DNA from: Microtetraspora niveoalba
GTDB taxonomy: Bacteria; Actinomycetota; Actinomycetes; Streptosporangiales; Streptosporangiaceae
Assembly: GCF_001570405.1 (NCBI RefSeq)
Contig: NZ_BBYM01000002.1
Coordinates: 259,921-323,920, forward strand
DNA: 64,000 nucleotides
Direction: 5' to 3'
Shown here: positions 5,433-17,074 of the stretch, in pieces
Layout of the letters: each line of letters starts with the position of its first letter
How positions within the stretch are numbered: the stretch's first letter is position 1
Made by a program: the position numbers and the translations under genes
Notes under the pieces: generated by a model
What the model saw: the letters and a program-made list of their open reading frames with translations, nothing else
What the model was told of the DNA's origin: nothing
The model's database searches: none

Positions 5433-7337
5433 ATGATCAACGTAATGCCGGTCGACGGCGTCAACCCCGATCCCGCCGTCCGCGAGCCCGCCGACCTGGT
5501 CGTCCGCAACGGCCGTGTGCACACAGGGGTGGCCGCCCGTCCCGCCGCCACGGCCCTCGCCGTCCGCGGAGGCCGCATCGTCGCTCTCGGAGACGACCGG
5601 GACATCGCCTCCTTCGTCGGCCCCGGCACCCGCGTCGTCGACGCGCTCAACCGGCGGATCATCCCCGGCCTCAACGACTCCCACCTGCACGTCATCCGCG
5701 GCGGCCTGAACTACCTGCTGGAACTCCGCTGGGACGGGGTCCCCTCGCTGCGCACCGCCCTGTGGATGCTGCGCGAGCAGGCCGCACGCACCCCCGCCGG
5801 CCAGTGGGTCCGCGTGGTGGGCGGATGGACCGGCGAGCAGTTCGCCGAACGGCGCCTTCCCACCGTCTCGGAGTTGAACGCCGCCGCTCCGGACACTCCC
5901 GTGTTCGTCCTGCACCTCTACCAGTCGGCCATCCTCAACCACGCGGCCGTACTCGCCGTCGGGCTCACCGGGGACAGCGTGGCGCCGCCGGGCGGCCAGA
6001 TCGTCCGGAACCACGCGGGCGAGCCCACCGGCATGCTGCTGGCCACGCCCGCGGCCGGCCTCCTGTACTCCACGCTCGCCAAGGGCCCCACGCTGACGGA
6101 TGAGGAACAGGTCGGCTCCACGCGGCACTTCCTGTACGAGCTGAACCGGCTTGGTCTGACCAGCGCGATCGACGCCGGGGGCGGCTTCCAGAACTTCCCC
6201 GAGAACTACGCGGCGGTGACGAGGCTCGCCGAGCAGGGCCTGCTGACCATGCGCATCGCCTATCACCTGTTCCCGCAGACCGCCGGTCAGGAGCTGGACG
6301 ACCTGCGACGGTGGATCGGGTCGGTACGGCCGGGTGACGGCGACGAATGGCTGCGGCTGAACGGCGCCGGGGAGAACCTCGCGTGGTCGCCCGCGGATTT
6401 CGAGAACTTCACCGAGCCCAGGCCGCTGCGGCCGGAGCGGGCCGACCGCGAACTCGAGGCCGCGGTGCGCCTGCTGCTCGACAACGGCTGGGGCTTCCGC
6501 CTGCACGCCACCTACGAGGAGACGATCCGCGCCGACCTCGACGTGTTCGAGCGGGTGGGAGCGGACGGCGGCTTCCCGCGCGGAGTGCCGTGGTTCTTCG
6601 ACCACGCCGAGACGGTGTCCGAGGCCAGCCTCGACCGGATCGCCGCGATGGGCGGCGCCCTGTCCGTCCAGAACCGGATGATGTTCCAGGGCGGCGCCTT
6701 CCGCGACCGGTACGGGGAGGCCCGCGCCGCCGACGCACCGCCACTGCGCCGGATGCTGGACCGGGGCCTGCTGGTCGCCGCCGGCACCGACGCCACCCGC
6801 GTGTCCAGCTACAACCCGTGGCTGTCCCTGGAATGGCTGGTGCGCGGGCGCAGCATCGGCGGCCGCCCGCTGGCGTCCGCGGAGAACCGGCTCGACCGTG
6901 AGACGGCGCTGCGCCTCTACACGGCGGCCGGCGCCCGGCTCACAGGCGAGGACCACGTCAAGGGCCTGCTGAAGGAGGGCTACTACGCCGACTTCGCGGT
7001 GCTCTCCGAGGACTTCTTCGCGGTGCCCGAGGAGGACATCTCCCACATCGAGTCGCTGCTCACCGTCGTCGGCGGGCGGATCGTGTACGCCGCGGGCGAG
7101 TTCGAGGGCCTGGCCGCGCCGCTGCCCGCCATGCGGCCGTCATGGAGTCCGGTCGCCTACTTCGGGGGATTCCACCGGACGATGTGGCCCACCCCTCCGA
7201 CCGGGGTCCGCCAGGCCCGGGCGCTGGTCGACGCGGTCGCGGAGTCGGAGGAGCACCGCCAGTGGCGTCTCAACCGGGGATTCGCCGAAGACCACGCCCC
7301 CGTGTCGGAGATCTTCGACTCCTGTTTCGTTCTGTGA
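5433..7337 (+). CDS. Amidohydrolase family 3 protein (YtcJ-like)
   Basis: 634 residues with the amidohydrolase-superfamily TIM barrel. The metal-binding HxH is seen in LNDSHLHV (about residue 80), with further candidate ligands in WFFDHAET and the metal-binding Asp in VAAGTDATRVSS. The N-terminal beta-sandwich (DLVVRNGRVHTG) and C-terminal EGYYADFAVLSEDFF are typical of Amidohydro_3. The family hydrolyses amide, urea or imine bonds of small molecules; the substrate cannot be inferred. GGGAGA lies 7 bp before the ATG. It is followed 36 bp later by an isochorismatase-like hydrolase and then an exporter, probably one transcription unit. Confidence 0.92.
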   Translation: MINVMPVDGVNPDPAVREPADLVVRNGRVHTGVAARPAATALAVRGGRIVALGDDRDIASFVGPGTRVVDALNRRIIPGLNDSHLHVIRGGLNYLLELRWDGVPSLRTALWMLREQAARTPAGQWVRVVGGWTGEQFAERRLPTVSELNAAAPDTPVFVLHLYQSAILNHAAVLAVGLTGDSVAPPGGQIVRNHAGEPTGMLLATPAAGLLYSTLAKGPTLTDEEQVGSTRHFLYELNRLGLTSAIDAGGGFQNFPENYAAVTRLAEQGLLTMRIAYHLFPQTAGQELDDLRRWIGSVRPGDGDEWLRLNGAGENLAWSPADFENFTEPRPLRPERADRELEAAVRLLLDNGWGFRLHATYEETIRADLDVFERVGADGGFPRGVPWFFDHAETVSEASLDRIAAMGGALSVQNRMMFQGGAFRDRYGEARAADAPPLRRMLDRGLLVAAGTDATRVSSYNPWLSLEWLVRGRSIGGRPLASAENRLDRETALRLYTAAGARLTGEDHVKGLLKEGYYADFAVLSEDFFAVPEEDISHIESLLTVVGGRIVYAAGEFEGLAAPLPAMRPSWSPVAYFGGFHRTMWPTPPTGVRQARALVDAVAESEEHRQWRLNRGFAEDHAPVSEIFDSCFVL

Positions 7338-7373
7338 CCGGCCGGTCGGACAGATGAGCCAGAGGAGAGAGCC

Positions 7374-8036
7374 ATGGGTGATATCGCGAACGCCGAGCCG
7401 GCGCCCGCGCGGTCGCTGCTCAGCCCGCAGGACAGCGTGGTCGTGATGGTGGACCACCAGCCGCAGATGTTCTTCGCCACCACCAGCGCCGACCGGGCGG
7501 AGATCGCCAACGCCGCGGTGGGGCTCGCGAAGGGCGCGAAGGTCTTCGGCGTGCCGGTCATCCTGACCACGGCCGCGGCCGCGACCTTCGCCGGTCCGCT
7601 CATAGCCCCGCTCGCGGACCTCTTCCCCGGCGTCCAGCCGATCGACCGGACCACGATGAACTGCTGGGAGGATCCTCGGGTGGTCGACGCGGTCACGGCG
7701 ACCGGCCGCCCCCGGATCGTGATGGCGGGCCTGTGGACCGAGGTGTGCATCTCCCTGGCCGCCCTGTCCGCGGTCGATCAGGGCTACGAGGTGTACGTGC
7801 CCACGGACGCCTGCGGAGGCGTGTCGGTGGAGGCCCATGAGAACGCGGTCCGCCGGATGACCGGGCACGGCATCGTGCCGACGACCTGGCTGACCACCGT
7901 GCTCGAATGGCAACGCGACTGGGGGCGCACCGAGACCTATGACGCCGTTGTGAAGGTCTTCGAGGAGCACGCCGGCGCGTACGGTCTCGGCATCCGCTAC
8001 GCGCACACGATGATCCGCGACCCCTCCGGGCACTGA
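7374..8036 (+). CDS. Isochorismatase-like cysteine hydrolase (YcaC type)
   Basis: 220 residues with the alpha/beta isochorismatase-hydrolase fold. The catalytic Asp is in VVVMVDHQPQMF (about residue 27) and the nucleophilic Cys in AGLWTEVCIS (about residue 127), which places it in the YcaC-like branch of amidases/hydrolases of unknown substrate. An AGGAGAG ribosome site precedes the ATG. The location directly behind the amidohydrolase suggests that both act on the same nitrogenous compound or its product. Confidence 0.92.
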   Translation: MGDIANAEPAPARSLLSPQDSVVVMVDHQPQMFFATTSADRAEIANAAVGLAKGAKVFGVPVILTTAAAATFAGPLIAPLADLFPGVQPIDRTTMNCWEDPRVVDAVTATGRPRIVMAGLWTEVCISLAALSAVDQGYEVYVPTDACGGVSVEAHENAVRRMTGHGIVPTTWLTTVLEWQRDWGRTETYDAVVKVFEEHAGAYGLGIRYAHTMIRDPSGH

Positions 8037-8130
8037 GTCCTCCGTGGACGGCGCCGGACGGGAACGCGACCTCGGGCGGGTGCGGTCGCCTCTCCGGCCC
8101 CGGCCCGCATCCGTACGGGGGCGATAGCCG

Positions 8131-9759
8131 ATGAAGCGACGACCCGGGGACGACGGCGAGCCGGCCGCGCCGCGCGCCGAGGCCGGATCGGCCTGGCGAC
8201 CGCTGGCCCTGCGCGCGTTCCGGATCTTGTGGCTGGCCCAGCTCGTGTCCAACATCGGGAGCTGGATGCAGACGGTCGGCGCCCAGTGGCTGATCAGCCG
8301 CGATTCGGGGTCCGCGGGTCTGGTCGCCCTGGTGCAGACGGCGATCAGCCTGCCGGTGCTGCTGCTGGGCATCCCCTCGGGTGTGCTGGCCGACATCGTC
8401 GACCGCCGGCGGCTGCTCCTGGCGGCCCAGGCCCTGATGTTCGTCGTCACGGGCGCGCTCGCGATCCTGACCGCGCTGGGACGCGTCACCTCTTACGGCG
8501 TCCTGATGCTGACGTTTCTGCTCGGCTGCGGCACCGCTCTCATGGGCCCGGCCTGGCAGGCCGTCCAGCCCGAGCTCGTGCCGCGTGACCAGATCCGCAA
8601 CGCCGCGACCCTCGGCGGCGTGAACGTCAACCTCGCGCGAGCCGTCGGCCCGGCCCTCGGGGGGCTGGTCGTGGCCCTGGCGGGCGCCGCCGCGACGTTC
8701 GCCCTCAACGCGCTGTCCTTCCTGGTCACGATGGCCGCGCTGGCGGCCTGGCGCCGGACGGCCACCCGCGACCCGATGGGAGCGGAGTCGGTGTTGCCGG
8801 CCCTGTGGGCCGGCTATCGATACGTGCGCCACGGGCCGCGGATCCGCCGGGTGCTGGGGCGGTCGTTGTTGTTCGTGCCCGCCGCCTCCGCCCTGTGGGC
8901 GCTGCTGCCGGTCGCCGCCCGGCAGCGGCTGGGGCTGGGAGCGGACGGGTACGGCCTCCTTCTCGGGGCGATCGGGGTGGGCGCGGTGCTCGGGGCGGCG
9001 CTGCTGCCACGGGTCCGCGGCCGCTGGTCGAGCAACGGCGCCCTCGCGGGCGGTGGTGTCCTGTTCGCGCTGACCATGGCCGTGCTGGCGGTGGTGCGCG
9101 TCCCGTGGCTCGCCATGGCGATCCTCGTGCTGTCCGGAGTGGCCTGGGTGGGCGTGCTGTCGACGTTCAACTCCCAGATGCAGGTCACGGCGCCCGACTG
9201 GGTGCGGAGCCGAGCACTGGCCGTCTATCTGACGATCTTCCAGGGCGGGATGGCGATCGGTTCGGCCGTATGGGGCGCGATCGCCGAGGGGCTCGGCGTG
9301 GCGGGCGCCCTGGCGGTGGCGGCGGGCGCGCTTGCCGCCGGATCCCTGATCGGGTCGCGCTTCGCCGTTCCGGACAGCCTTCTGGACCGATCACCCTCGA
9401 TGCACTGGTCCGCGCCCGTCATGGTGCTGGAGCCCGCGGCGAGGGAGGGACCGGTGCTGGTCACGGTGGAGTACCACGTGCCGCCTGAGCGTGCGGACGC
9501 CTTCGTGGAGGCCATGGCGGCGGTCGGGCGCTCCCGGCTGCGCACCGGCGCCCTGCGCTGGAACCTCTTCCAGGATGGGGCACGCCCCGAGGTGTACCTG
9601 GAGATGTTCATGCTGGCCTCGTGGGACGAACACCTGCGGCAGCACGGCGGGCGGCTCACGGGCGCGGACCGGATCGTGGAGCAGGAAGCGCGCTCCCTGG
9701 TGGATCGCCCCTTCCGCATCTCCCACTACCTCCCGGCCCGCGTACGCGACCGGGACTGA
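8131..9759 (+). CDS. MFS transporter, MFS_3/enterobactin-exporter-like, with C-terminal soluble domain
   Basis: 542 residues. Roughly residues 28-430 form about 12 membrane segments; FRILWLAQLVSNIGSWMQTV is the typical first helix of the MFS_3 family (EntS-like drug/siderophore exporters). The last 95 residues (EYHVPPERADAFVEAM, HLRQHGGRLTGAD) form an antibiotic-biosynthesis-monooxygenase-like soluble tail that is regular in this family. It follows the two hydrolases by 94 bp in the same direction and converges on the fusion enzyme at 9777, 17 bp away. Export of a small molecule is likely; the substrate is unknown. Confidence 0.93.
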   Translation: MKRRPGDDGEPAAPRAEAGSAWRPLALRAFRILWLAQLVSNIGSWMQTVGAQWLISRDSGSAGLVALVQTAISLPVLLLGIPSGVLADIVDRRRLLLAAQALMFVVTGALAILTALGRVTSYGVLMLTFLLGCGTALMGPAWQAVQPELVPRDQIRNAATLGGVNVNLARAVGPALGGLVVALAGAAATFALNALSFLVTMAALAAWRRTATRDPMGAESVLPALWAGYRYVRHGPRIRRVLGRSLLFVPAASALWALLPVAARQRLGLGADGYGLLLGAIGVGAVLGAALLPRVRGRWSSNGALAGGGVLFALTMAVLAVVRVPWLAMAILVLSGVAWVGVLSTFNSQMQVTAPDWVRSRALAVYLTIFQGGMAIGSAVWGAIAEGLGVAGALAVAAGALAAGSLIGSRFAVPDSLLDRSPSMHWSAPVMVLEPAAREGPVLVTVEYHVPPERADAFVEAMAAVGRSRLRTGALRWNLFQDGARPEVYLEMFMLASWDEHLRQHGGRLTGADRIVEQEARSLVDRPFRISHYLPARVRDRD

Positions 9760-9776: not shown

Positions 9777-12700
9777 TCAGCCGGGAAGCGGCAGTGGACC
9801 GCCGTGGCCGGGCAGGCCCCGGTCGTCCGAGATCGTCTCCTCGACCGCCCCCTCGTCCGTGAAGCCCTGGCCGCGGGTCTGCTCGGCGAGGCGCTGGTAG
9901 TAGCCCGAGACCGCGGCGAGCGCCTCGCGTGCCGCGTTCAGCAGCGTGGCCCCCGCCTGCTCGACGACGTCGGCCTCGTGGATCTCGAACGCCCGGATCC
10001 CTTCCAGCACGGCGGTTTTCAGGTCGCGCAGCAGTCGGACGTCGACGTGCGCGTAGACGCGGCACAACCCCGCGACCCGCCGGAAGTCGTCCCCGGCGAG
10101 CAGCAGCTCCTTTACGGCGGACACGGAATGCCGGACCAGCCCGACATCCGGCCGCGCGGACATGGCGGCGAGATCGGTGTCGAAGGACCGGATGTCCAGG
10201 TGCGGGTCGCAGAAGCCGACGGTGAGCTGCCACAGGGTGCGCAGGTCCTCGCGCACCAGCCCGTCCAGATAGCTGACCAGGAACCGCCGGTGCGCCTCGA
10301 GGACGTACTGCGCCTTGAAGGGCGTCAGCTCCCCGGGATCTTCGCCCGAGGTCGTGACCGACGCGGTGAATCCGTAGTCGGCGGCCAGCGCGTTCTCCAT
10401 GCCGACCAGCAGGTACACGAACCGTACCCAGGTCCGGAACAGCTCTTCCAGCGGCAGCGCGCGCAGACCGCCCTCGGTGAGCACCACGCCCCACCGGGCG
10501 CCGAACCGCAGCCGGCGCAGATGGCCGATCTGGTACATCGCGAGCTCGGCGTCGATCTCGGCGTGCGCGTGGTGCAACACCTTCCGATACGCCGCGGTCG
10601 CGTCGAGCCCGACGTGATTGCGGATGATGTGCGGCCCGCCGATGTGCAGGTGCAGGAACTCTCCGACGTCGAACACCGCGCCGCCGATCGCCATCCAGTA
10701 GCCCGCGTCGGCGGTGTTGCGCCGCGCCAGATCCGACACCTCGAAGCGGGGCCCCTGCTGCGCGTGGCCCAGATAGGTGGTGAAGACGTCCTGGCCCAGA
10801 CGTCCCTCGGCCACCAGTCGGCGGAGGAATTCACGGCCGTCGCCGGGAACGACGTCGGTCAACGCCTGGAGCACCGAGACGGCGAACCGTGCGCTGCCGC
10901 ACACGTAGACGTACGCGCCGCGGCCGCCGTCGTCGGTGGACCGCAACAGCTCCCAGAGCGCTTCCGCCTCGGCGCGGACCACGTCGTCCACCCGGCGCCG
11001 CTGTCCGGCTTGCACGACGTGGCGCCGGCCGTCGAACGCGATCGCGGCGTCGGCGCGGGAGAACGCGACGGAGAGTCTCAGCCGGCCCGCGGCCGCCGCC
11101 GCGTCCAGGTCCGTGTGCTCGGCGAACTCCTCCGGCGTCCGGATCCCCAGGTAGAGGCGGTTCTCGCCCGGCCCGGTACGCGCGGCGACGAACCCCAGGA
11201 ACGGGGCGATCCCGGAACCGGCCGCGAACATGACGACGGGCCGGGCGGGATCGGCCGGCAGCCGGAACCGGGGCGTGGGGACGATCTGCAGCGACAACCG
11301 TCGCCGCCCCTCGACGCTCGCGCGGCGCAGGAAATGCGACGCCGTGCCGTGCCGTTCCCGCGGGTACGACCACGGCGTCCCGGCGGAGGTGTAGCCGAGG
11401 CCGGCGACCACCAGCTTCAGCGTGGTGGCCGGTTCGCCGGGCGGCGGCGCCGAGGCGATCGAGTACAGCCGGAACGGCTCGGGCGGGATCACCGCGCAGA
11501 ACGCGTCGTCCTCGCGGGGATCGGCCTTCCACAGCCGGGTGACGTCATATCCGCCCGCGTACAGCAGGTTCAGGACGTCCCACAGCTCCCACTGGTCCTC
11601 CATGCGGGCGTCCACCACTCGCTGCCAGGAGCCCACGGCTGTCAGTCTCACCAGCCGTTTCGCCACCTCCCGCCCGATCGGCCGGAGCCGGGCGAAGCGC
11701 AGCAACGTCCGCAGCGGCAGCACGTCGACCTCGTCGTAGCCCGCCCGGCAGGCCACCGCCGCCCGCCACTCCGGGGTGAGCCGCACCAGCTCGTCGCCGG
11801 TCGCCTGCAGGGCGGCGACCGTGCGGCGCACCAGCTCGTCGTCGTTCTCGGCCAGCACGCCGACCCGGTCGCCGGGCAAGTGGTGCACGCCCTGGCCGGT
11901 GACGTCGAGCTCCAGATGACAGGTCCAGGCGCCGGACTCTCCGCTGACGACACGGCCCCGGCGGGCGGTCCCGAACACCACCGGCGGACCCACCGGCGGG
12001 CGGCGCTCGTCGCGGGCGATGGCGAGCTGGTCGTCCACCTTGTCCCAGGTCCGGTCCTTGAACAGTCCGGTGAACCGGGCGCCGGTCGTCACCTGACGGC
12101 CGACCTTGAACGCCACCTCCAGAAAGCCGTACGTCTTGACGCGGTGCAGGCCCATCCAGCCGCGGTCGCCCACATAGGCGTCGAGCACGGCGTTGTAGAT
12201 GCCGCGCAAGGTCTTGTTGCGGGTGTCCTCGACGTACTGGCGCACCGACACCTCGCGCAACGCGGCCACCAGCTCCTGCCAGTGCCGCGGGAAGAATCCG
12301 GAGAGGTAGGTGCTCTGCCGGCCGACCACCGAGCCGTAGTCCCGGCGCTCGAGAAACGCGTCCAGCGCGTGGATCTGCGGTTGCGCGGTGCCGCTCGGGC
12401 TGGGCGCGCCGTCGAAGATCGGAACGCCCGCGGTGCCGACCGTCTTGGCCCACAACACCTGGTCGAGCGGATGCCGGGCGCGGGGGTTGGGGTCGATCTG
12501 CGGATAGACGGCCTGGGTGACGTGCCGCAGCCGGTCGAGGATCACCAGGAGCGCGCTCTCCAGGGCGGCCGGGTCGTCCGCGACGACGGCTTCCTGGGCA
12601 TCCAGCATGGCGCCCAGCACGGGTGTGAGCGCCATCGCGAATTCGGTGGTGACCAGGTAGAACACCCGCTCCGCCGAGTTGTTCCAGGTCGGCACGAGCA

Positions 12701-13481
12701 GGTCCATGTTGTCCAGCGCCCGCGGCCCGGCGGGGTCGCGCAGCCGCCAGTTGTAGAAGAACAGGTCGATGTAGGAGACGGCCGGAATCTCCTTGCCCAG
12801 CCGGCGCGAGACCGTGGTCCACGGCCGCAGCAGCGACTCGGGCAGGGCGGCCGGCGGATCGATCGCCATGTACTGGTAGGCGTGGGCGAAAACGCCGAGC
12901 AGGGTCGAGGCGCGCAGCAGGTACCGGTCGGGCAACGCGGCGGGCCGGGCGTCGAGCACCGGCATCGCGTCGAACGCCCGGCGCAGCGACAGCCGGCGGA
13001 ACAGCTCGGGGAGCCGGTCGGTCATCTCGTCCCAGGCTCGGTGCGACTCCGGGAAGGCCTGCAGCGGCGGCTCGACCGGCAGGAATCCGTGCGCGAGCGA
13101 CAGGAAACCGTCGATCTCGTGGCCGACCCGCAGGTTGTGCGCCTCGGCGGCCTCCACCACGCGGCGTGCGGCGACACGCGGCGGCCCGACCGGCCGCAGC
13201 ACGGTCATCTGGTCCGGATCGACGAGCGCCGTCGCCTCCGGATCGAGGAACGTCCACGTCAGCTCGAATCGGCCGATGCGCATCCGGTCCCCGGGGACGA
13301 GCACCTGGCGCGTCACCCGCGTGTCGTTCACGTAGGTTCCGTTGGAGCTGCCGAGGTCGGTGAGCACCAGGCGGTCGCCGGCGATCTCCAGCCGCGCGTG
13401 GCGCCGGGATACGGTGCCGTCGTCCAGCACCACCGCGGCCGCACCGCTGTCCCGGCCGAGAGTGGCCGGCAGCGCGCACAC
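9777..13481 (-). CDS. FHA - indoleamine-dioxygenase-like - FAD/NADPH reductase - cytochrome b5 fusion protein
   Basis: 1,234 residues from the GTG at 13481. Domains in order: FHA (1-80; LGRD, SRRHARLE, LGSSNGTYVN); an all-helical IDO-like heme domain (about 105-475), with VSRRLGKEIPAVSYIDLF, AQPQIHALDAFLERRD and GLHRVKTYGFLEV aligning by eye with human IDO, the His in the last being the expected heme ligand; a cytochrome-P450-reductase-like FAD/NADPH module (about 490-885) with RLYSIASAP, FAAGSGIAPFLGF and YVCGSARFAVSV but no flavodoxin domain; a cytochrome b5 domain (about 905-990), with HIGG in place of HPGG and a second His in VLHHAHAEID; and an unassigned helical tail of about 245 residues. 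Membrane segments are absent. It follows the CBS gene directly. The FHA domain lacks its first strand from this GTG; reading in frame up to an ATT at 13536-13538 restores it. Confidence 0.95.
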   Translation of the reverse strand: MCALPATLGRDSGAAAVVLDDGTVSRRHARLEIAGDRLVLTDLGSSNGTYVNDTRVTRQVLVPGDRMRIGRFELTWTFLDPEATALVDPDQMTVLRPVGPPRVAARRVVEAAEAHNLRVGHEIDGFLSLAHGFLPVEPPLQAFPESHRAWDEMTDRLPELFRRLSLRRAFDAMPVLDARPAALPDRYLLRASTLLGVFAHAYQYMAIDPPAALPESLLRPWTTVSRRLGKEIPAVSYIDLFFYNWRLRDPAGPRALDNMDLLVPTWNNSAERVFYLVTTEFAMALTPVLGAMLDAQEAVVADDPAALESALLVILDRLRHVTQAVYPQIDPNPRARHPLDQVLWAKTVGTAGVPIFDGAPSPSGTAQPQIHALDAFLERRDYGSVVGRQSTYLSGFFPRHWQELVAALREVSVRQYVEDTRNKTLRGIYNAVLDAYVGDRGWMGLHRVKTYGFLEVAFKVGRQVTTGARFTGLFKDRTWDKVDDQLAIARDERRPPVGPPVVFGTARRGRVVSGESGAWTCHLELDVTGQGVHHLPGDRVGVLAENDDELVRRTVAALQATGDELVRLTPEWRAAVACRAGYDEVDVLPLRTLLRFARLRPIGREVAKRLVRLTAVGSWQRVVDARMEDQWELWDVLNLLYAGGYDVTRLWKADPREDDAFCAVIPPEPFRLYSIASAPPPGEPATTLKLVVAGLGYTSAGTPWSYPRERHGTASHFLRRASVEGRRRLSLQIVPTPRFRLPADPARPVVMFAAGSGIAPFLGFVAARTGPGENRLYLGIRTPEEFAEHTDLDAAAAAGRLRLSVAFSRADAAIAFDGRRHVVQAGQRRRVDDVVRAEAEALWELLRSTDDGGRGAYVYVCGSARFAVSVLQALTDVVPGDGREFLRRLVAEGRLGQDVFTTYLGHAQQGPRFEVSDLARRNTADAGYWMAIGGAVFDVGEFLHLHIGGPHIIRNHVGLDATAAYRKVLHHAHAEIDAELAMYQIGHLRRLRFGARWGVVLTEGGLRALPLEELFRTWVRFVYLLVGMENALAADYGFTASVTTSGEDPGELTPFKAQYVLEAHRRFLVSYLDGLVREDLRTLWQLTVGFCDPHLDIRSFDTDLAAMSARPDVGLVRHSVSAVKELLLAGDDFRRVAGLCRVYAHVDVRLLRDLKTAVLEGIRAFEIHEADVVEQAGATLLNAAREALAAVSGYYQRLAEQTRGQGFTDEGAVEETISDDRGLPGHGGPLPLPG

Positions 13482-13530
13482 CCGCTCGCTGGTCTCGCGG
13501 GTGTGCCGATCGGTGAGGATCAGCCGGAGC

Positions 13531-13974
13531 TCAGGAATGGTAGATCACCGCCCGGCACAGATCAGCGCGGGACAGCGTGCCCACGAGGGTCCCGTCGTCG
13601 ACCACGGGAAGCCTTCGGATCCCGCGGTCGATCATCACGATCGCCGCCCGGGCGAGCTCGTCGGCCGATCGGACCGTCACCGCGTCGCGCACGACGAGGG
13701 GATCGATGACGCGGTCGGCGAAGGCGCGGCCCCGCTCCAGGAAGATCCGGAACGCGTCGGCGAGCGTGCCGCCGGCGGCGGTCACGTCGTCGAACCCGGG
13801 CAGCATGGCCCGCACCAGGTCCTCCTCGGACAGTGACCCGACGAACCGGCCGTCGTGGTCCAGGACCATCAGTTGGCCGACCTCCGACACGCTGACCAGC
13901 TCGGCCGCCCGCCGGATGGTCGCGCCGAGCCGTATGTGGGCCGGGAACGCCGTCATGACGTCGCTGACGAGCAC
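13531..13974 (-). CDS. Two-CBS-domain protein upstream of the fusion oxidoreductase
   Basis: 147 residues from a GTG preceded by an excellent GGAGG 4 bp away (a longer ATG start at 14010 has none). Two CBS motifs fill it: MLVSDVMTAFPAHI to SLSEEDLVRAM, and VIDPLVVRDAVTV to GTLSRADLCRAV. CBS pairs bind adenine nucleotides or other small ligands and act as sensors. Its stop codon lies 50 bp before the GTG of the fusion protein and overlaps the possible ATT start of that gene, so the two are almost certainly co-transcribed and may be translationally coupled. It may be an energy-state sensor for the redox enzyme. Confidence 0.92.
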   Translation of the reverse strand: MLVSDVMTAFPAHIRLGATIRRAAELVSVSEVGQLMVLDHDGRFVGSLSEEDLVRAMLPGFDDVTAAGGTLADAFRIFLERGRAFADRVIDPLVVRDAVTVRSADELARAAIVMIDRGIRRLPVVDDGTLVGTLSRADLCRAVIYHS

Positions 13975-14407
13975 GCCACCTCCCAGGTCCGCCCCGCGGT
14001 CGTTCCGCACAATCGGTTACCTGGCCACTCATCCGAGAGAATCATCCGCGAGTATAAATTCATCCCAAATGCGGTGTACACCCCCGGACGTGGGTCGGCA
14101 CGGCGTGTTCTGGACCGATCCCGAGCGCCGGGAGAAGGTATCGCCGAGTTGTACGCCAGACCGCTGGACCGTCGGGGCGGGGCGACGGTCGGCGGGACCG
14201 GGCGCCGGCTGGATCCGCTTGTCGTGGCGACCTCGTAGCGCCCAGGTTCCGCGGAGACGAGCGATGTGCGGCGGAAGTGTCAGTGGTGATCAGTATGGTG
14301 CCGGCCATGGCTGATGCGGTGCCGACGTGCTCATACGTTCGCTCTTCCCCGCCCGACCCGCGGTCGGGCCATCCGGGTCCGTCCACCTCGTACGGCACGG
14401 TGCCGAT
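13975..14407. other. Intergenic region between CBS and DUF6493 genes
   Basis: About 430 bp. It includes an AT-richer patch around 14045-14080 that may hold the promoter of the CBS/fusion operon. A 38-codon open frame at 14295-14411 ends in a TGA that overlaps the GTG start of the next gene (GTGA). I see no other gene. Confidence 0.5.
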
Positions 14408-17074
14408 GTGAACCCGTGGCAGGAGGTCGTCGAGTGCATCGAAGGGCGCCACGACGACGACCTGATGGACGTCCTCGTTTCCCTGAGCGAGCTGGGGCGG
14501 CAGGTGGTGGCCGCGCGGCTTCCCCGTTATCTGGCCGAGCGCCTCGCCGAGGGATGGGAGGCACGATGGAACGTTGAGGACCAGGCCTCGGGATTCCGCC
14601 TCGCGGGCGCGGCCTGCTTCACGCGCTCCGCGCAGGTGGCGACCTGGCTCAGTCGGCGCGAGCTGCGCGAGGTGCGCGACTCGCGTCTGGACGCCGAGCG
14701 CATCCGGACGCTGGTGAGGGACCGGCCGCAGGAGTGGCGTGCGGATCTCGCGGTGCGGCTGGTACGGCGGTTGCGGCGCCCGGCGGACAGGTGGCGTCGT
14801 CCCGGCGGTCCGCCGGGGTGGGAGCTGGCCGCCGGGCTGCTGGTGGAGACCGGCAGCGAGCCACCGGAGGCGGACGTGTTCGTCGAGGGCTGGGTCCGCC
14901 AGGCGAGCGCGACGCGCCGTATGAACGGCGGGCGCGCCGCTATCGGGGACGATCCGCTGCTCGACGTGATGGTCCCGCGGCTGTTCCGTGCGGAGGGGGT
15001 CGCCGCCGCGCTGGTCGCGGACCTCCGATGGGCTCCGGAGACGTCGCTGGTCTCGGCGCTCGCCGCCCTCGGCGGCTCCGGTCGGCTGAAGCGCCAGGAG
15101 CTGATCGACGGTTGCGCCGCGCGTTTCCTCGCGGGGGGCGACGCGGCGGAGCTCCGGCCGTTCGTGACGTTGTGGACGGAGCTGCGGCCGTCGTCGGCGG
15201 AGATCCCGCTGCTCGACTTCGTCCGGCTGCTGCCGTCGGCCGCGTCGCCGTTCGTACAGATGGCGCTCGACGCGCTGGGCCGGGCCGACGACGAGGGCCT
15301 GCTCGACGACGAGCTGTTCGCTGAGGCGGTCCATGCCCTCGCCTTCCGGCCGGAGAAGAAGTTCGTCACCGCCGCCCTGCGGTGGATCGCGCGGTCGGCG
15401 ACCGGCGACAGCGCTGCCGGGCGGGCCGGCGGCGCGCTGGCTGCGCTGGCGATGATCTTCGGTCACGAGGTTGCCACCCTCCAGGGCCGGGCGGTGAAGC
15501 TCGCGGTCGCGCTCGCCGCGCAGGCGGACCCGTCGGCGTCGGAGGAGGTCCGAACGGCGGCGGGTGGGCTCGCACCGGAACTCCGGGAGCGGATCGCCGC
15601 CGCCTTCGGCGAGGTGCCGGCCGAGGAGCCGCAAGATCCGCCCACAGCCGCGGCCCTGATCGTGGCGCCGCTGCCCGGACCCCTGCCGCCCATCACCTCG
15701 CCGAAGGAACTGGCGGTCGAATTGGCCCGTCCCCTCTGGCCAGAGGAGCCCGCCGTGTTCGAGCGCATCCTGGCGGCGCTGGTCGAACTCACCCACCGTG
15801 ACCGCACGGCTGTGGCCGCGGCGCTCACCCCCTGGCGGCGGCGTACCTGGCCCGACCCGTTCGACGCCCGTATCTACGTGTACGGCATCAGCGGCTACGA
15901 CCGGGACATCCGCTCCCTGCTGTCCCGCGCCGCGTTGGCGGTGGTGTCTCCGGAGGAGAGCAAGGAGCTCACCAGCCTGCTGGCCGACCACCAGCGTGAA
16001 TACCCGCCGTACGACCGGAGCCTCCAGGTGCTCGTCCAGCGCCGGCTGCGCGAGGTGCTCTTCATGCTGGAAGCCGGACACTCGATGCCGCTGCTGCTCG
16101 CGACGCCGACCACCACGACCGGGCATGTCGCCCCAGACATCTTGATCGACCGGATGGAACGGCTCGAGGGCGCCGAACCTCTGCCCGCCGACTTCCACCA
16201 GGCGCTGCTCCGGCTGCCCAGGACGATCGACCCGGCGACGGCCGTACGGGCGGAACGACTGACCTCGCAGGCGGGACGGCGGCTGGCAGCACTGCTACGC
16301 GATGGCGGGCTCCCCGACCCCACGGTGACAAGCGGTGTCGAGAGCCGCCGGTACAGAAGCGCCATGTACGGCGGCGAGATGGTCATCCAGAGGATGCGTC
16401 CACGGGTGACGCCGCCCCCAGGCGTCCCCGAGGAGATCCGGAAGGTGTGGACCGTGGAGACCGACGAGGTGTCGGGGGCCCATTCGTATGAGACGGTGTG
16501 GTGGCCGACGATGATGCCGTCCCATCGCGACGTCGTAGCCGCGCACCTCCTGGAATCCGCTCCGTGGCTGCCCCACGGCGACGACGGCCAGATGGAGGCA
16601 CTCCGGAGGCTCGTCCACGGGGACGGCCCGGTCGGCGTGGCGGTGGCCGGGGCGATCGTCTGCGTCATGGCCCACGCGCGGCCGGCACGGCGGGCGGCGG
16701 CGACCGACGCCCTCGTCACGCTGGCTGCGCGGGACGAAGTTCCCGCGGCGGAGATCGGGCGCTTGCTGGTGGAAATGGCCGTTGCGGGCAGGCTGAAGCT
16801 CAACCGGGCGGTGACCGTCCTGGACGACGCCGTGCACGCGGGCGCGCACGCCTCAGTGTGGTCGATCCTCGCGGAGGCGCTCCCCGCGCTGCTGCCCCCC
16901 GCGGGGGAAAGGCCCAGGGCCGGGCTCGGGGACCTCCTCGCGGTCGGCGCCCGAGCGGCCGCCCTGACCGGAGCACGCGCCGACATCCCGGAACTCACCG
17001 AGGTCGCGACACGGCACGGGCGTAGCCGGCTGGTCGAGGAGGCTCGCCGCCTCCACCGACGGTTGTCCGGGTGA
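14408..17074 (+). CDS. DUF6493 family protein
   Basis: 888 residues from GTG 14408, where the family-like N-terminus MNPWQEVVECIEG begins; a GTG at 14327 in the same frame would add 27 residues. The protein is rich in helical, Leu/Ala-dense repeats (ELGRQVVAARLPRYLAERL, and others throughout) typical of the DUF6493/HEAT-like family. No catalytic motif is visible. In other actinomycetes DUF6493 genes often lie beside SWIM zinc-finger, MoxR ATPase and VWA genes; none is here, so this copy looks solitary. A short upstream frame ends on its start codon. A terminator hairpin follows. Role unknown. Confidence 0.85.
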   Translation: MNPWQEVVECIEGRHDDDLMDVLVSLSELGRQVVAARLPRYLAERLAEGWEARWNVEDQASGFRLAGAACFTRSAQVATWLSRRELREVRDSRLDAERIRTLVRDRPQEWRADLAVRLVRRLRRPADRWRRPGGPPGWELAAGLLVETGSEPPEADVFVEGWVRQASATRRMNGGRAAIGDDPLLDVMVPRLFRAEGVAAALVADLRWAPETSLVSALAALGGSGRLKRQELIDGCAARFLAGGDAAELRPFVTLWTELRPSSAEIPLLDFVRLLPSAASPFVQMALDALGRADDEGLLDDELFAEAVHALAFRPEKKFVTAALRWIARSATGDSAAGRAGGALAALAMIFGHEVATLQGRAVKLAVALAAQADPSASEEVRTAAGGLAPELRERIAAAFGEVPAEEPQDPPTAAALIVAPLPGPLPPITSPKELAVELARPLWPEEPAVFERILAALVELTHRDRTAVAAALTPWRRRTWPDPFDARIYVYGISGYDRDIRSLLSRAALAVVSPEESKELTSLLADHQREYPPYDRSLQVLVQRRLREVLFMLEAGHSMPLLLATPTTTTGHVAPDILIDRMERLEGAEPLPADFHQALLRLPRTIDPATAVRAERLTSQAGRRLAALLRDGGLPDPTVTSGVESRRYRSAMYGGEMVIQRMRPRVTPPPGVPEEIRKVWTVETDEVSGAHSYETVWWPTMMPSHRDVVAAHLLESAPWLPHGDDGQMEALRRLVHGDGPVGVAVAGAIVCVMAHARPARRAAATDALVTLAARDEVPAAEIGRLLVEMAVAGRLKLNRAVTVLDDAVHAGAHASVWSILAEALPALLPPAGERPRAGLGDLLAVGARAAALTGARADIPELTEVATRHGRSRLVEEARRLHRRLSG

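What the first reader, a model, noticed from the sequence alone, without database searches (positions are those of the whole stretch)
9777..13974. A self-contained IDO-like dioxygenase: FHA, heme domain, P450-type reductase and cytochrome b5 in one chain, with a CBS partner gene
Seen: one continuous reading frame with FHA motifs, an all-helical region aligning by eye with indoleamine 2,3-dioxygenase (including the proximal-His helix GLHRVKTYGFLEV and the AQPQIHALDAFL segment), FAD and NADPH motifs of the P450-reductase type without a flavodoxin domain, and a cytochrome b5 domain with both axial histidines. Known: mammalian IDO1 is activated by reduction of ferric heme, and cytochrome b5 with cytochrome P450 reductase can supply the electrons. 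Inference: this bacterium carries those partners fused, with b5 in place of the FMN domain, and places the enzyme under FHA (phospho-Thr) and CBS (adenylate) control. I know of no described enzyme with this order. It could be a tryptophan/indole dioxygenase, a heme monooxygenase or a redox sensor.
Basis: partly seen in the sequence, partly recalled or inferred. Interest (0 to 1): 0.93.

Follow-up and report, generated by a model that had tools for sequence, protein, structure and literature searches.

The report
Self-powered IDO-type heme enzyme
This bacterium carries one long protein that joins a phosphopeptide-binding-type (FHA) domain, an indoleamine-dioxygenase-type domain, a P450-reductase-type domain and a cytochrome b5-type domain, beside a conserved CBS-domain gene; it is predicted to be an NADPH-driven heme oxygenase that likely acts on something other than tryptophan, and so would be a new way of powering this enzyme family.

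Summary

The tryptophan reading is weakened. The equivalent of IDO1 Arg231, which holds the substrate carboxylate, is Gly or Ala in 25 of 25 fused rows and Arg in 16 of 16 standalone rows. The fused domains form their own group (100/100). 19 of 22 bearer genomes encode a separate TDO-family gene. In 22 of 22 bearers every detected b5 domain is IDO-fused.

Best reading: a self-sufficient oxygenase, NADPH to FAD to b5 to IDO-fold heme, with CBS and FHA as likely regulators. Substrate, cofactor binding, electron transfer and regulation are untested.

The parts
14051..14080 (-). promoter-like site TGTACA-18-TATACT upstream of the CBS gene
   Evidence: 9 of 12 consensus matches; 1 found, shuffles mean 0.1; TATACT box seen by eye in 8 of the 14 relatives aligned. 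Consensus match only.
13531..13974 (-). CBS-domain gene (GTG start, 147 aa, one pair of CBS domains); S49xxD52 and S135xxD138 motifs largely conserved
   Evidence: PF00571 77.3 bits, 2 stretches; adjacency in relatives; start and motifs
9777..13538 (-). FHA-IDO-reductase-b5-helical fusion gene, 1253 aa from a predicted ATT start whose frame overlaps the end of the CBS gene by 8 bases; stop codon 9779-9777
13224..13538 (-). FHA domain, residues 1-105; residues R29, S44, H47, N66 of the phosphothreonine site (roles recalled)
   Evidence: PF00498 63 bits; R29 92 of 92 letters, S44 108 of 108, N66 111 of 112
12039..13184 (-). IDO-fold domain, residues 119-500
12144..12146 (-). H465, predicted proximal heme ligand (IDO1 His346 equivalent)
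   Evidence: H in 25 of 25 fused and 16 of 16 standalone rows
12435..12437 (-). G368, place of the substrate-anchoring Arg231 of IDO1
   Evidence: Gly/Ala in 25 of 25 fused rows, Arg in 16 of 16 standalone rows; 116 Gly, 5 Ala, 4 gaps
10764..11978 (-). P450-reductase-type FAD/NADPH module without flavodoxin domain, residues 521-925
10515..10763 (-). cytochrome b5 domain, residues 926-1008; predicted axial His H965 (10646-10644) and H989 (10574-10572)
   Evidence: PF00173 45.7 bits
9780..10514 (-). C-terminal all-helical domain, residues 1009-1253, with conserved PGHGG tail (9812-9798)
   Evidence: pLDDT 90.3; 67 hits, which look like pieces of this family; not checked one by one; no clear solved relative; tail His in 116 of 121 letters

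Best explanation
The chain joins an FHA domain, an IDO-family domain, a P450-reductase-type module, a cytochrome b5 domain and a helical domain, and is predicted to be a self-sufficient heme oxygenase in which NADPH would reduce FAD, FAD would reduce the b5 heme, and b5 would feed the IDO-fold heme that likely activates O2 for a substrate other than tryptophan. Shown: the fusion, the conserved heme-ligand and flavin/nucleotide residues, the loss of the tryptophan-anchoring Arg, the conserved CBS gene next upstream; the IDO fold is a confident prediction. Inferred: heme and flavin occupancy, the direction of electron flow, O2 as the oxidant, the unknown substrate. Also inferred: the CBS protein (nucleotide-type motifs) and the FHA domain (phosphothreonine-type residues, likely a later addition) set when the enzyme works. 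The helical domain and its PGHGG tail are likely structural or docking elements for the b5-IDO unit.
Against: No activity, cofactor or substrate is shown. Human IDO needs one priming electron for many turnovers (PMC12921851 passage), so a reductase does not prove a monooxygenase. An invariant Lys (K365, three residues before the lost Arg) might take over the carboxylate, and T484 (122 of 123 letters) in the JK-loop region might be the Thr379 equivalent; the alignment there is uncertain and the model has pLDDT under 50 in residues 471-495. PF03301 membership does not prove that the separate gene cleaves tryptophan, and two bearers, G140 and G397, showed neither a TDO nor a second IDO. FAD_binding_1 is under its cut-off in the window's protein. 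The order of electron transfer cannot be read from the model: coordinates and PAE were not available. PrnB, a related heme enzyme, gave no product with CPR or b5 (PMC11791213 passages). The paralogue without reductase shows that the module is not indispensable. A sensor role is not excluded.
Confidence: 0.5

Rival explanations
1. A genuine tryptophan (or indole) 2,3-dioxygenase whose reductase and b5 only keep the heme ferrous, as CPR and b5 are reported to do for human IDO1 in vitro.
For: IDO fold and proximal His; reported CPR/b5 support of IDO1 (passages); K365 or T484 could replace lost anchors; two bearers, G140 and G397, showed no TDO and no second IDO.
Against: Arg231 equivalent absent in every fused row with a letter there; separate group; 19 of 22 bearers have a TDO-family gene and G396 has a standalone IDO with the Arg; no other gene recurs at a fixed place beside it, so no pathway context supports it (neighbours were clustered, not annotated).
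Confidence: 0.15
2. A nitric oxide dioxygenase or peroxide/nitrite reductase, working like flavohaemoglobin but with an IDO-fold heme domain in place of the globin.
For: Heme plus FAD/NAD module (plus b5) in one chain resembles the flavohaemoglobin plan (recalled); the site has lost its amino-acid anchor; no recurring biosynthetic neighbour, which suits a small-molecule substrate.
Against: Aromatic residues stay at the places of IDO1 Phe163 and Phe226 (F293, W363 invariant), more suited to an organic substrate; no direct evidence; the flavohaemoglobin NCBIfam match covers part of the reductase only (16.9 bits, cut-off 432).
Confidence: 0.15
3. A redox or gas sensor: the hemes and flavin set a state that is reported through FHA and the CBS protein, with little catalysis.
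For: FHA domain and CBS neighbour; fixed two-gene unit without recurring metabolic neighbours.
Against: Reductase with conserved catalytic residues; FHA is missing in other branches while reductase, b5 and CBS stay, so signalling through FHA is not the core.
Confidence: 0.12

Closest known systems
Indoleamine 2,3-dioxygenase (IDO1/IDO2, PF01231)
   Different: fused to reductase, b5 and a helical domain; Arg231 equivalent is Gly/Ala; GTGG loop not recognisable; separate group in the tree
P450 BM3 (CYP102A1) and nitric oxide synthase
   Same: works like: heme oxygenase domain fused to a CPR-type FAD/NADPH module
   Different: IDO-fold heme domain, not P450 or NOS; no FMN domain, b5 instead and placed after the reductase
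NADPH-cytochrome P450 reductase / sulfite reductase flavoprotein FAD module
   Different: no flavodoxin domain; the terminal Trp (CPR Trp677, recalled) is Phe
Human IDO1 with CPR and cytochrome b5
   Same: the same three modules, reported to support catalysis in vitro (PMC13142367 passages)
   Different: there separate proteins, and that paper calls their role in vivo unclear; here fused and conserved
Flavohaemoglobin
   Same: heme domain plus FAD/NAD module in one chain
   Different: globin fold and a different reductase family; no b5, FHA or CBS (flavohaemoglobin anatomy recalled)
PrnB, MarE and other heme-dependent aromatic oxygenases
   Same: His-ligated heme oxygenases related to IDO/TDO (PMC11791213 passages)
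   Different: no PF08933 match was reported for this protein; no fused reductase in those enzymes (recalled)

Membership tests
IDO family PF01231 (as a domain family) | HMM score over curated cut-off | tested here: met
   104.5 bits vs 26
IDO family PF01231 (as a domain family) | IDO fold | tested here: met
IDO family PF01231 (as a domain family) | proximal His (IDO1 His346) | tested here: met
   H465; 25 of 25 and 16 of 16 rows
Tryptophan-cleaving IDO (enzyme) | Arg231 that holds the substrate carboxylate | tested here: not met
   Gly/Ala in 25 of 25 fused rows; Arg in 16 of 16 standalone; 0 Arg among 121 letters
Tryptophan-cleaving IDO (enzyme) | JK-loop GTGG with Thr379 | tested here: inconclusive
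   GTGG not seen at its place in the fused rows, but T484 is near and nearly invariant; loop alignment and model unsure
Tryptophan-cleaving IDO (enzyme) | oxidises L-Trp to N-formylkynurenine | not testable with these tools
   needs purified protein
Tryptophan 2,3-dioxygenase PF03301 / PrnB PF08933 | Pfam match | tested here: not met
   neither listed at E<=1 for the window's protein (HMMER filters apply)
CPR-type diflavin reductase | FAD/connecting/NADPH module | tested here: met
CPR-type diflavin reductase | FMN flavodoxin domain | tested here: not met
   no flavodoxin match listed; IDO and b5 occupy the neighbouring parts of the chain
Cytochrome b5 | PF00173 and two axial His | tested here: met
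   45.7 bits vs 23.7; H965, H989
FHA domain | PF00498 and phosphothreonine-binding Arg/Ser/Asn | tested here: met
   63 bits vs 20.7; R29, S44, N66 (roles recalled). Binding not tested.
CBS pair (Bateman module) | two CBS domains with S/TxxD nucleotide motif | tested here: met
   77.3 bits, 2 stretches; S49 in 10 and D52 in 11 of 11 rows, S135 in 11 and D138 in 10 of 11. Ligand binding not tested.
Self-sufficient P450 / NOS / flavohaemoglobin | P450, NOS or globin heme domain | tested here: not met
   no such match listed at E<=1
Anti-phage defence systems (PADLOC) | profile match | tested here: not met
   0 families for both proteins at E<=0.01

The most novel reading that the evidence does not exclude
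A new class of self-sufficient heme oxygenase: the IDO fold wired, P450-style, for repeated NADPH-driven O2 activation through a dedicated cytochrome b5, acting on a non-tryptophan substrate and gated by an adenylate-sensing CBS partner and, in one lineage, by phosphothreonine signalling through a built-in FHA domain. It is an ancient two-gene unit shared by Actinomycetota and Chloroflexota.
Probability: 0.4. Interest if true: 0.9.

Novelty: new variant of a known kind. Interest (0 to 1): 0.8.

Why it matters
Whether the reductants that support IDO1 in the test tube do so in cells is still called unclear in a 2026 preprint (PMC13142367, passages). This family joins the same partners to an IDO domain in one chain, so it makes b5-to-IDO electron transfer directly testable in one purified protein. 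It also shows an IDO branch that lost its tryptophan anchor, pointing to unknown chemistry in a fold usually equated with tryptophan. It has gone unnoticed by name: none of the source names shown (such as 'FHA domain-containing protein' or 'sulfite reductase (NADPH) flavoprotein alpha-component') mentions IDO.

Tried and rejected
Neighbourhood as a clue to the substrate: called ORFs of 29 other loci and the window were clustered. After the fusion gene (29 loci) and the CBS gene (23 by gene call, 28 by tblastn), the next clusters have 8 and 6 members (7 and 6 loci), largely Herbidospora synteny or at changing places. Neighbours of the distant members (LuxR-type regulator, P450, AMP-binding enzyme, L-PSP-family protein, pyridine nucleotide oxidoreductase) differ from one another.

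Defence system: no PADLOC match. Named NCBIfam family: none over its cut-off among those listed.

Literature: eight answered searches. Six were aimed at such a protein or at bacterial IDO relatives, two at IDO background. In the titles and abstract starts shown, no paper describes an IDO fused to a reductase or b5, an FHA-IDO protein or its CBS neighbour. The library holds open-licence papers only; a 2011 paper on the evolution of bacterial IDO (Yuasa et al., seen only as a reference) was not read and might mention relatives. Passages, not whole texts, were seen of PMC11791213, PMC6072487, PMC13142367, PMC12921851, PMC5758539, PMC4217691.

An early PDB search used the wrong reading frame (a meaningless weak hit); repeated in frame.

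Full report
What is there. The minus strand from 13538 to 9777 encodes one continuous chain. Pfam gives FHA (63 bits), IDO PF01231 (104.5 bits, cut-off 26), FAD_binding_1 (29.5, just under 32.3), NAD_binding_1 (25.4, cut-off 22) and Cyt-b5 (45.7, cut-off 23.7) in this order. Upstream, 13974-13531, is a gene for one pair of CBS domains (77.3 bits).

Start codon. The listed GTG start (13481) cuts off the beginning of the FHA domain. In the window and 25 relatives an in-frame ATT lies 19 codons upstream, overlapping the end of the CBS gene (26 of 27 rows; the 27th, L021, has the ATT at another offset; L027, left out of that count, has ATG at the same place). The stretch between ATT and GTG looks translated by its substitution pattern: 783 synonymous to 857 non-synonymous single-base codon differences, against 507:1225 and 299:1296 in the other two frames (pairs are not independent). 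GGTGATC, complementary to the 16S 3' end (recalled), stands upstream in 25 of 26 rows. It also encodes part of the CBS protein, so it is not free evidence. In L061 the gene has an ordinary ATG; L061 shares contig and protein length with P0089, named Ktedonospora formicarum. I therefore number 1253 residues from the ATT.

Residues. In an alignment of the window, the 120 listed homologues and four distant relatives (125 rows, fragments and the window's own twin included) the proximal His H465 is kept in 123 of 123 rows with a letter, b5 H965 in 120 of 121 and H989 in 121 of 123. The equivalents of the reductase's catalytic and NADPH-binding residues and of the FHA phosphothreonine residues are kept (roles recalled). 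In IDO1 the substrate carboxylate interacts with Arg231, and Arg231 and Thr379 correspond to the tryptophan-holding Arg144 and Thr342 of TDO (PMC12921851 and PMC5758539 passages). In a joint alignment of 25 fused rows (chosen by me) and 16 standalone IDO rows this Arg is present in 16 of 16 standalone and replaced by Gly or Ala in 25 of 25 fused. In the 125-row set it is 116 Gly, 5 Ala, 4 gaps. L063's Arg was aligned to an Arg of human IDO2 by HMMER; that this is the IDO1 Arg231 place is recalled. The GTGG loop is not recognisable in the fused rows, but a nearly invariant Thr (T484) is close, so that point stays open. W363 (at Phe226), K365, K468 and T484 mark the family. K365, three residues before the lost Arg, might compensate.

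Family. A tree of these 41 rows puts the fused domains on one side of a branch with 100/100 support; L055 and L056 are long branches. FHA is absent in the other branches tested (L029; P0120, L056, L059), so it was likely added later; IDO, reductase, b5, helical domain and CBS neighbour look like the core. Complete members occur in Actinomycetota and Chloroflexota by record names. Partial sequences named Polyangiaceae and Coleofasciculaceae match IDO plus reductase. A paralogue in G508 has IDO, b5 and at least the start of the helical domain but no reductase. The system is not common: 3 fused-type bearers, the window's genome included, in 396 Actinomycetota genomes sampled (the fourth match, G023, is standalone), 17 of 200 in the order, again with the window's (an 18th match, G582, scores like the standalone type), 2 of 400 in the sample around G396 (10 further matches have open frames of 398-512 aa and low scores), 4 of 4 in the genus.

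Context. The CBS gene is next upstream in 28 of 29 loci from genome contigs (with a gap of about 300 bases in L029); the 29th, L030, matched over 292 residues only and has no CBS match. It is also next upstream in L056 and L059, where the IDO domain is only 38-45% identical, and in L061. It is absent beside the paralogue L055. No other gene recurs at a fixed place beyond close relatives. The CBS nucleotide motifs are kept in 10 of 11 rows each.

Two tests speak for a dedicated, non-tryptophan system. First, 19 of 22 bearer genomes encode a TDO-family gene (PF03301), the window's own included (186 bits), though family membership does not prove the activity. Of the three without, G396 has a standalone IDO with the Arg; G140 and G397 showed no second IDO either and are the exceptions to tell. 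Second, in 22 of 22 bearers all 23 b5 domains detected at E<=1e-3 lie in the IDO-fused frames, so these bacteria seem to keep b5 for this use alone. The 22 were those with handles.

Mechanism. By anatomy I take NADPH to FAD to b5 heme to IDO-fold heme to O2. All of this is inference from homology. CPR with or without b5 is reported to support human IDO1 in vitro (PMC13142367), and human IDO can also act as a monooxygenase (PMC12921851). A fused reductase would suit continuous turnover, but one priming electron suffices for the known IDO cycle (same paper), so a dioxygenase is not excluded. PrnB, a related enzyme, gave no product with CPR or b5 (PMC11791213). The CBS and FHA parts are taken as regulators because their ligand motifs are intact. 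No ligand or partner is shown.

Novelty. Eight answered literature searches showed no description (listed under Tried and rejected). All parts are known kinds; the combination, the lost anchor and the conserved CBS neighbour are new to me.

Noticed in passing
13538-13536 (-): A conserved non-canonical ATT start codon, overlapping the end of the upstream gene; most of the close-relative database entries looked at start the protein 19 codons late or later. ATT starts are otherwise best known from infC (recalled).
   Followed up: partly
9780-10514 (-): All-helical C-terminal domain of about 245 residues with no Pfam match and no clear structural relative.
   Followed up: partly
9812-9798 (-): PGHGG motif in the low-confidence C-terminal tail, its His kept in 116 of 121 letters; absent in L055, L056 and L059.
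   Followed up: no
L055:3679-5658: Paralogue with IDO, b5 and part of the helical domain but without reductase and without CBS gene, beside a LuxR-type regulator and a P450.
   Followed up: partly
L063:4540-5664: Genome G396 (Anaerolineae MAG of L029) carries a standalone IDO with the tryptophan-anchoring Arg as well as the fused protein.
   Followed up: yes
L030:5601-6476: Acrocarpospora corrugata shows only a reductase stretch of the gene (292 residues) and no CBS match: decayed copy or assembly gap.
   Followed up: no
P0145 and P0202: Two Dactylosporangium cerinum proteins (526 aa with FHA and IDO; 209 aa of the C-terminal part) share one contig length, so the gene may be split there.
   Followed up: no
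14051-14080 (-): One sigma-70-like promoter match upstream of the CBS gene; TATACT box seen by eye in 8 of 14 relatives aligned.
   Followed up: partly
5433-9759 (+): Convergent neighbours: amidohydrolase, isochorismatase-fold hydrolase, MFS_3 transporter with a weak ABM-like end; no recurrence beside the system was seen in the clusters.
   Followed up: partly
14327-17074 (+): Divergent 915-aa protein with a DUF7824 match (30.3 bits), function unknown.
   Followed up: no
homologues P0005, P0019, P0028 and others: Some sources name these proteins sulfite reductase flavoprotein alpha-component; the reductase module resembles that family.
   Followed up: no
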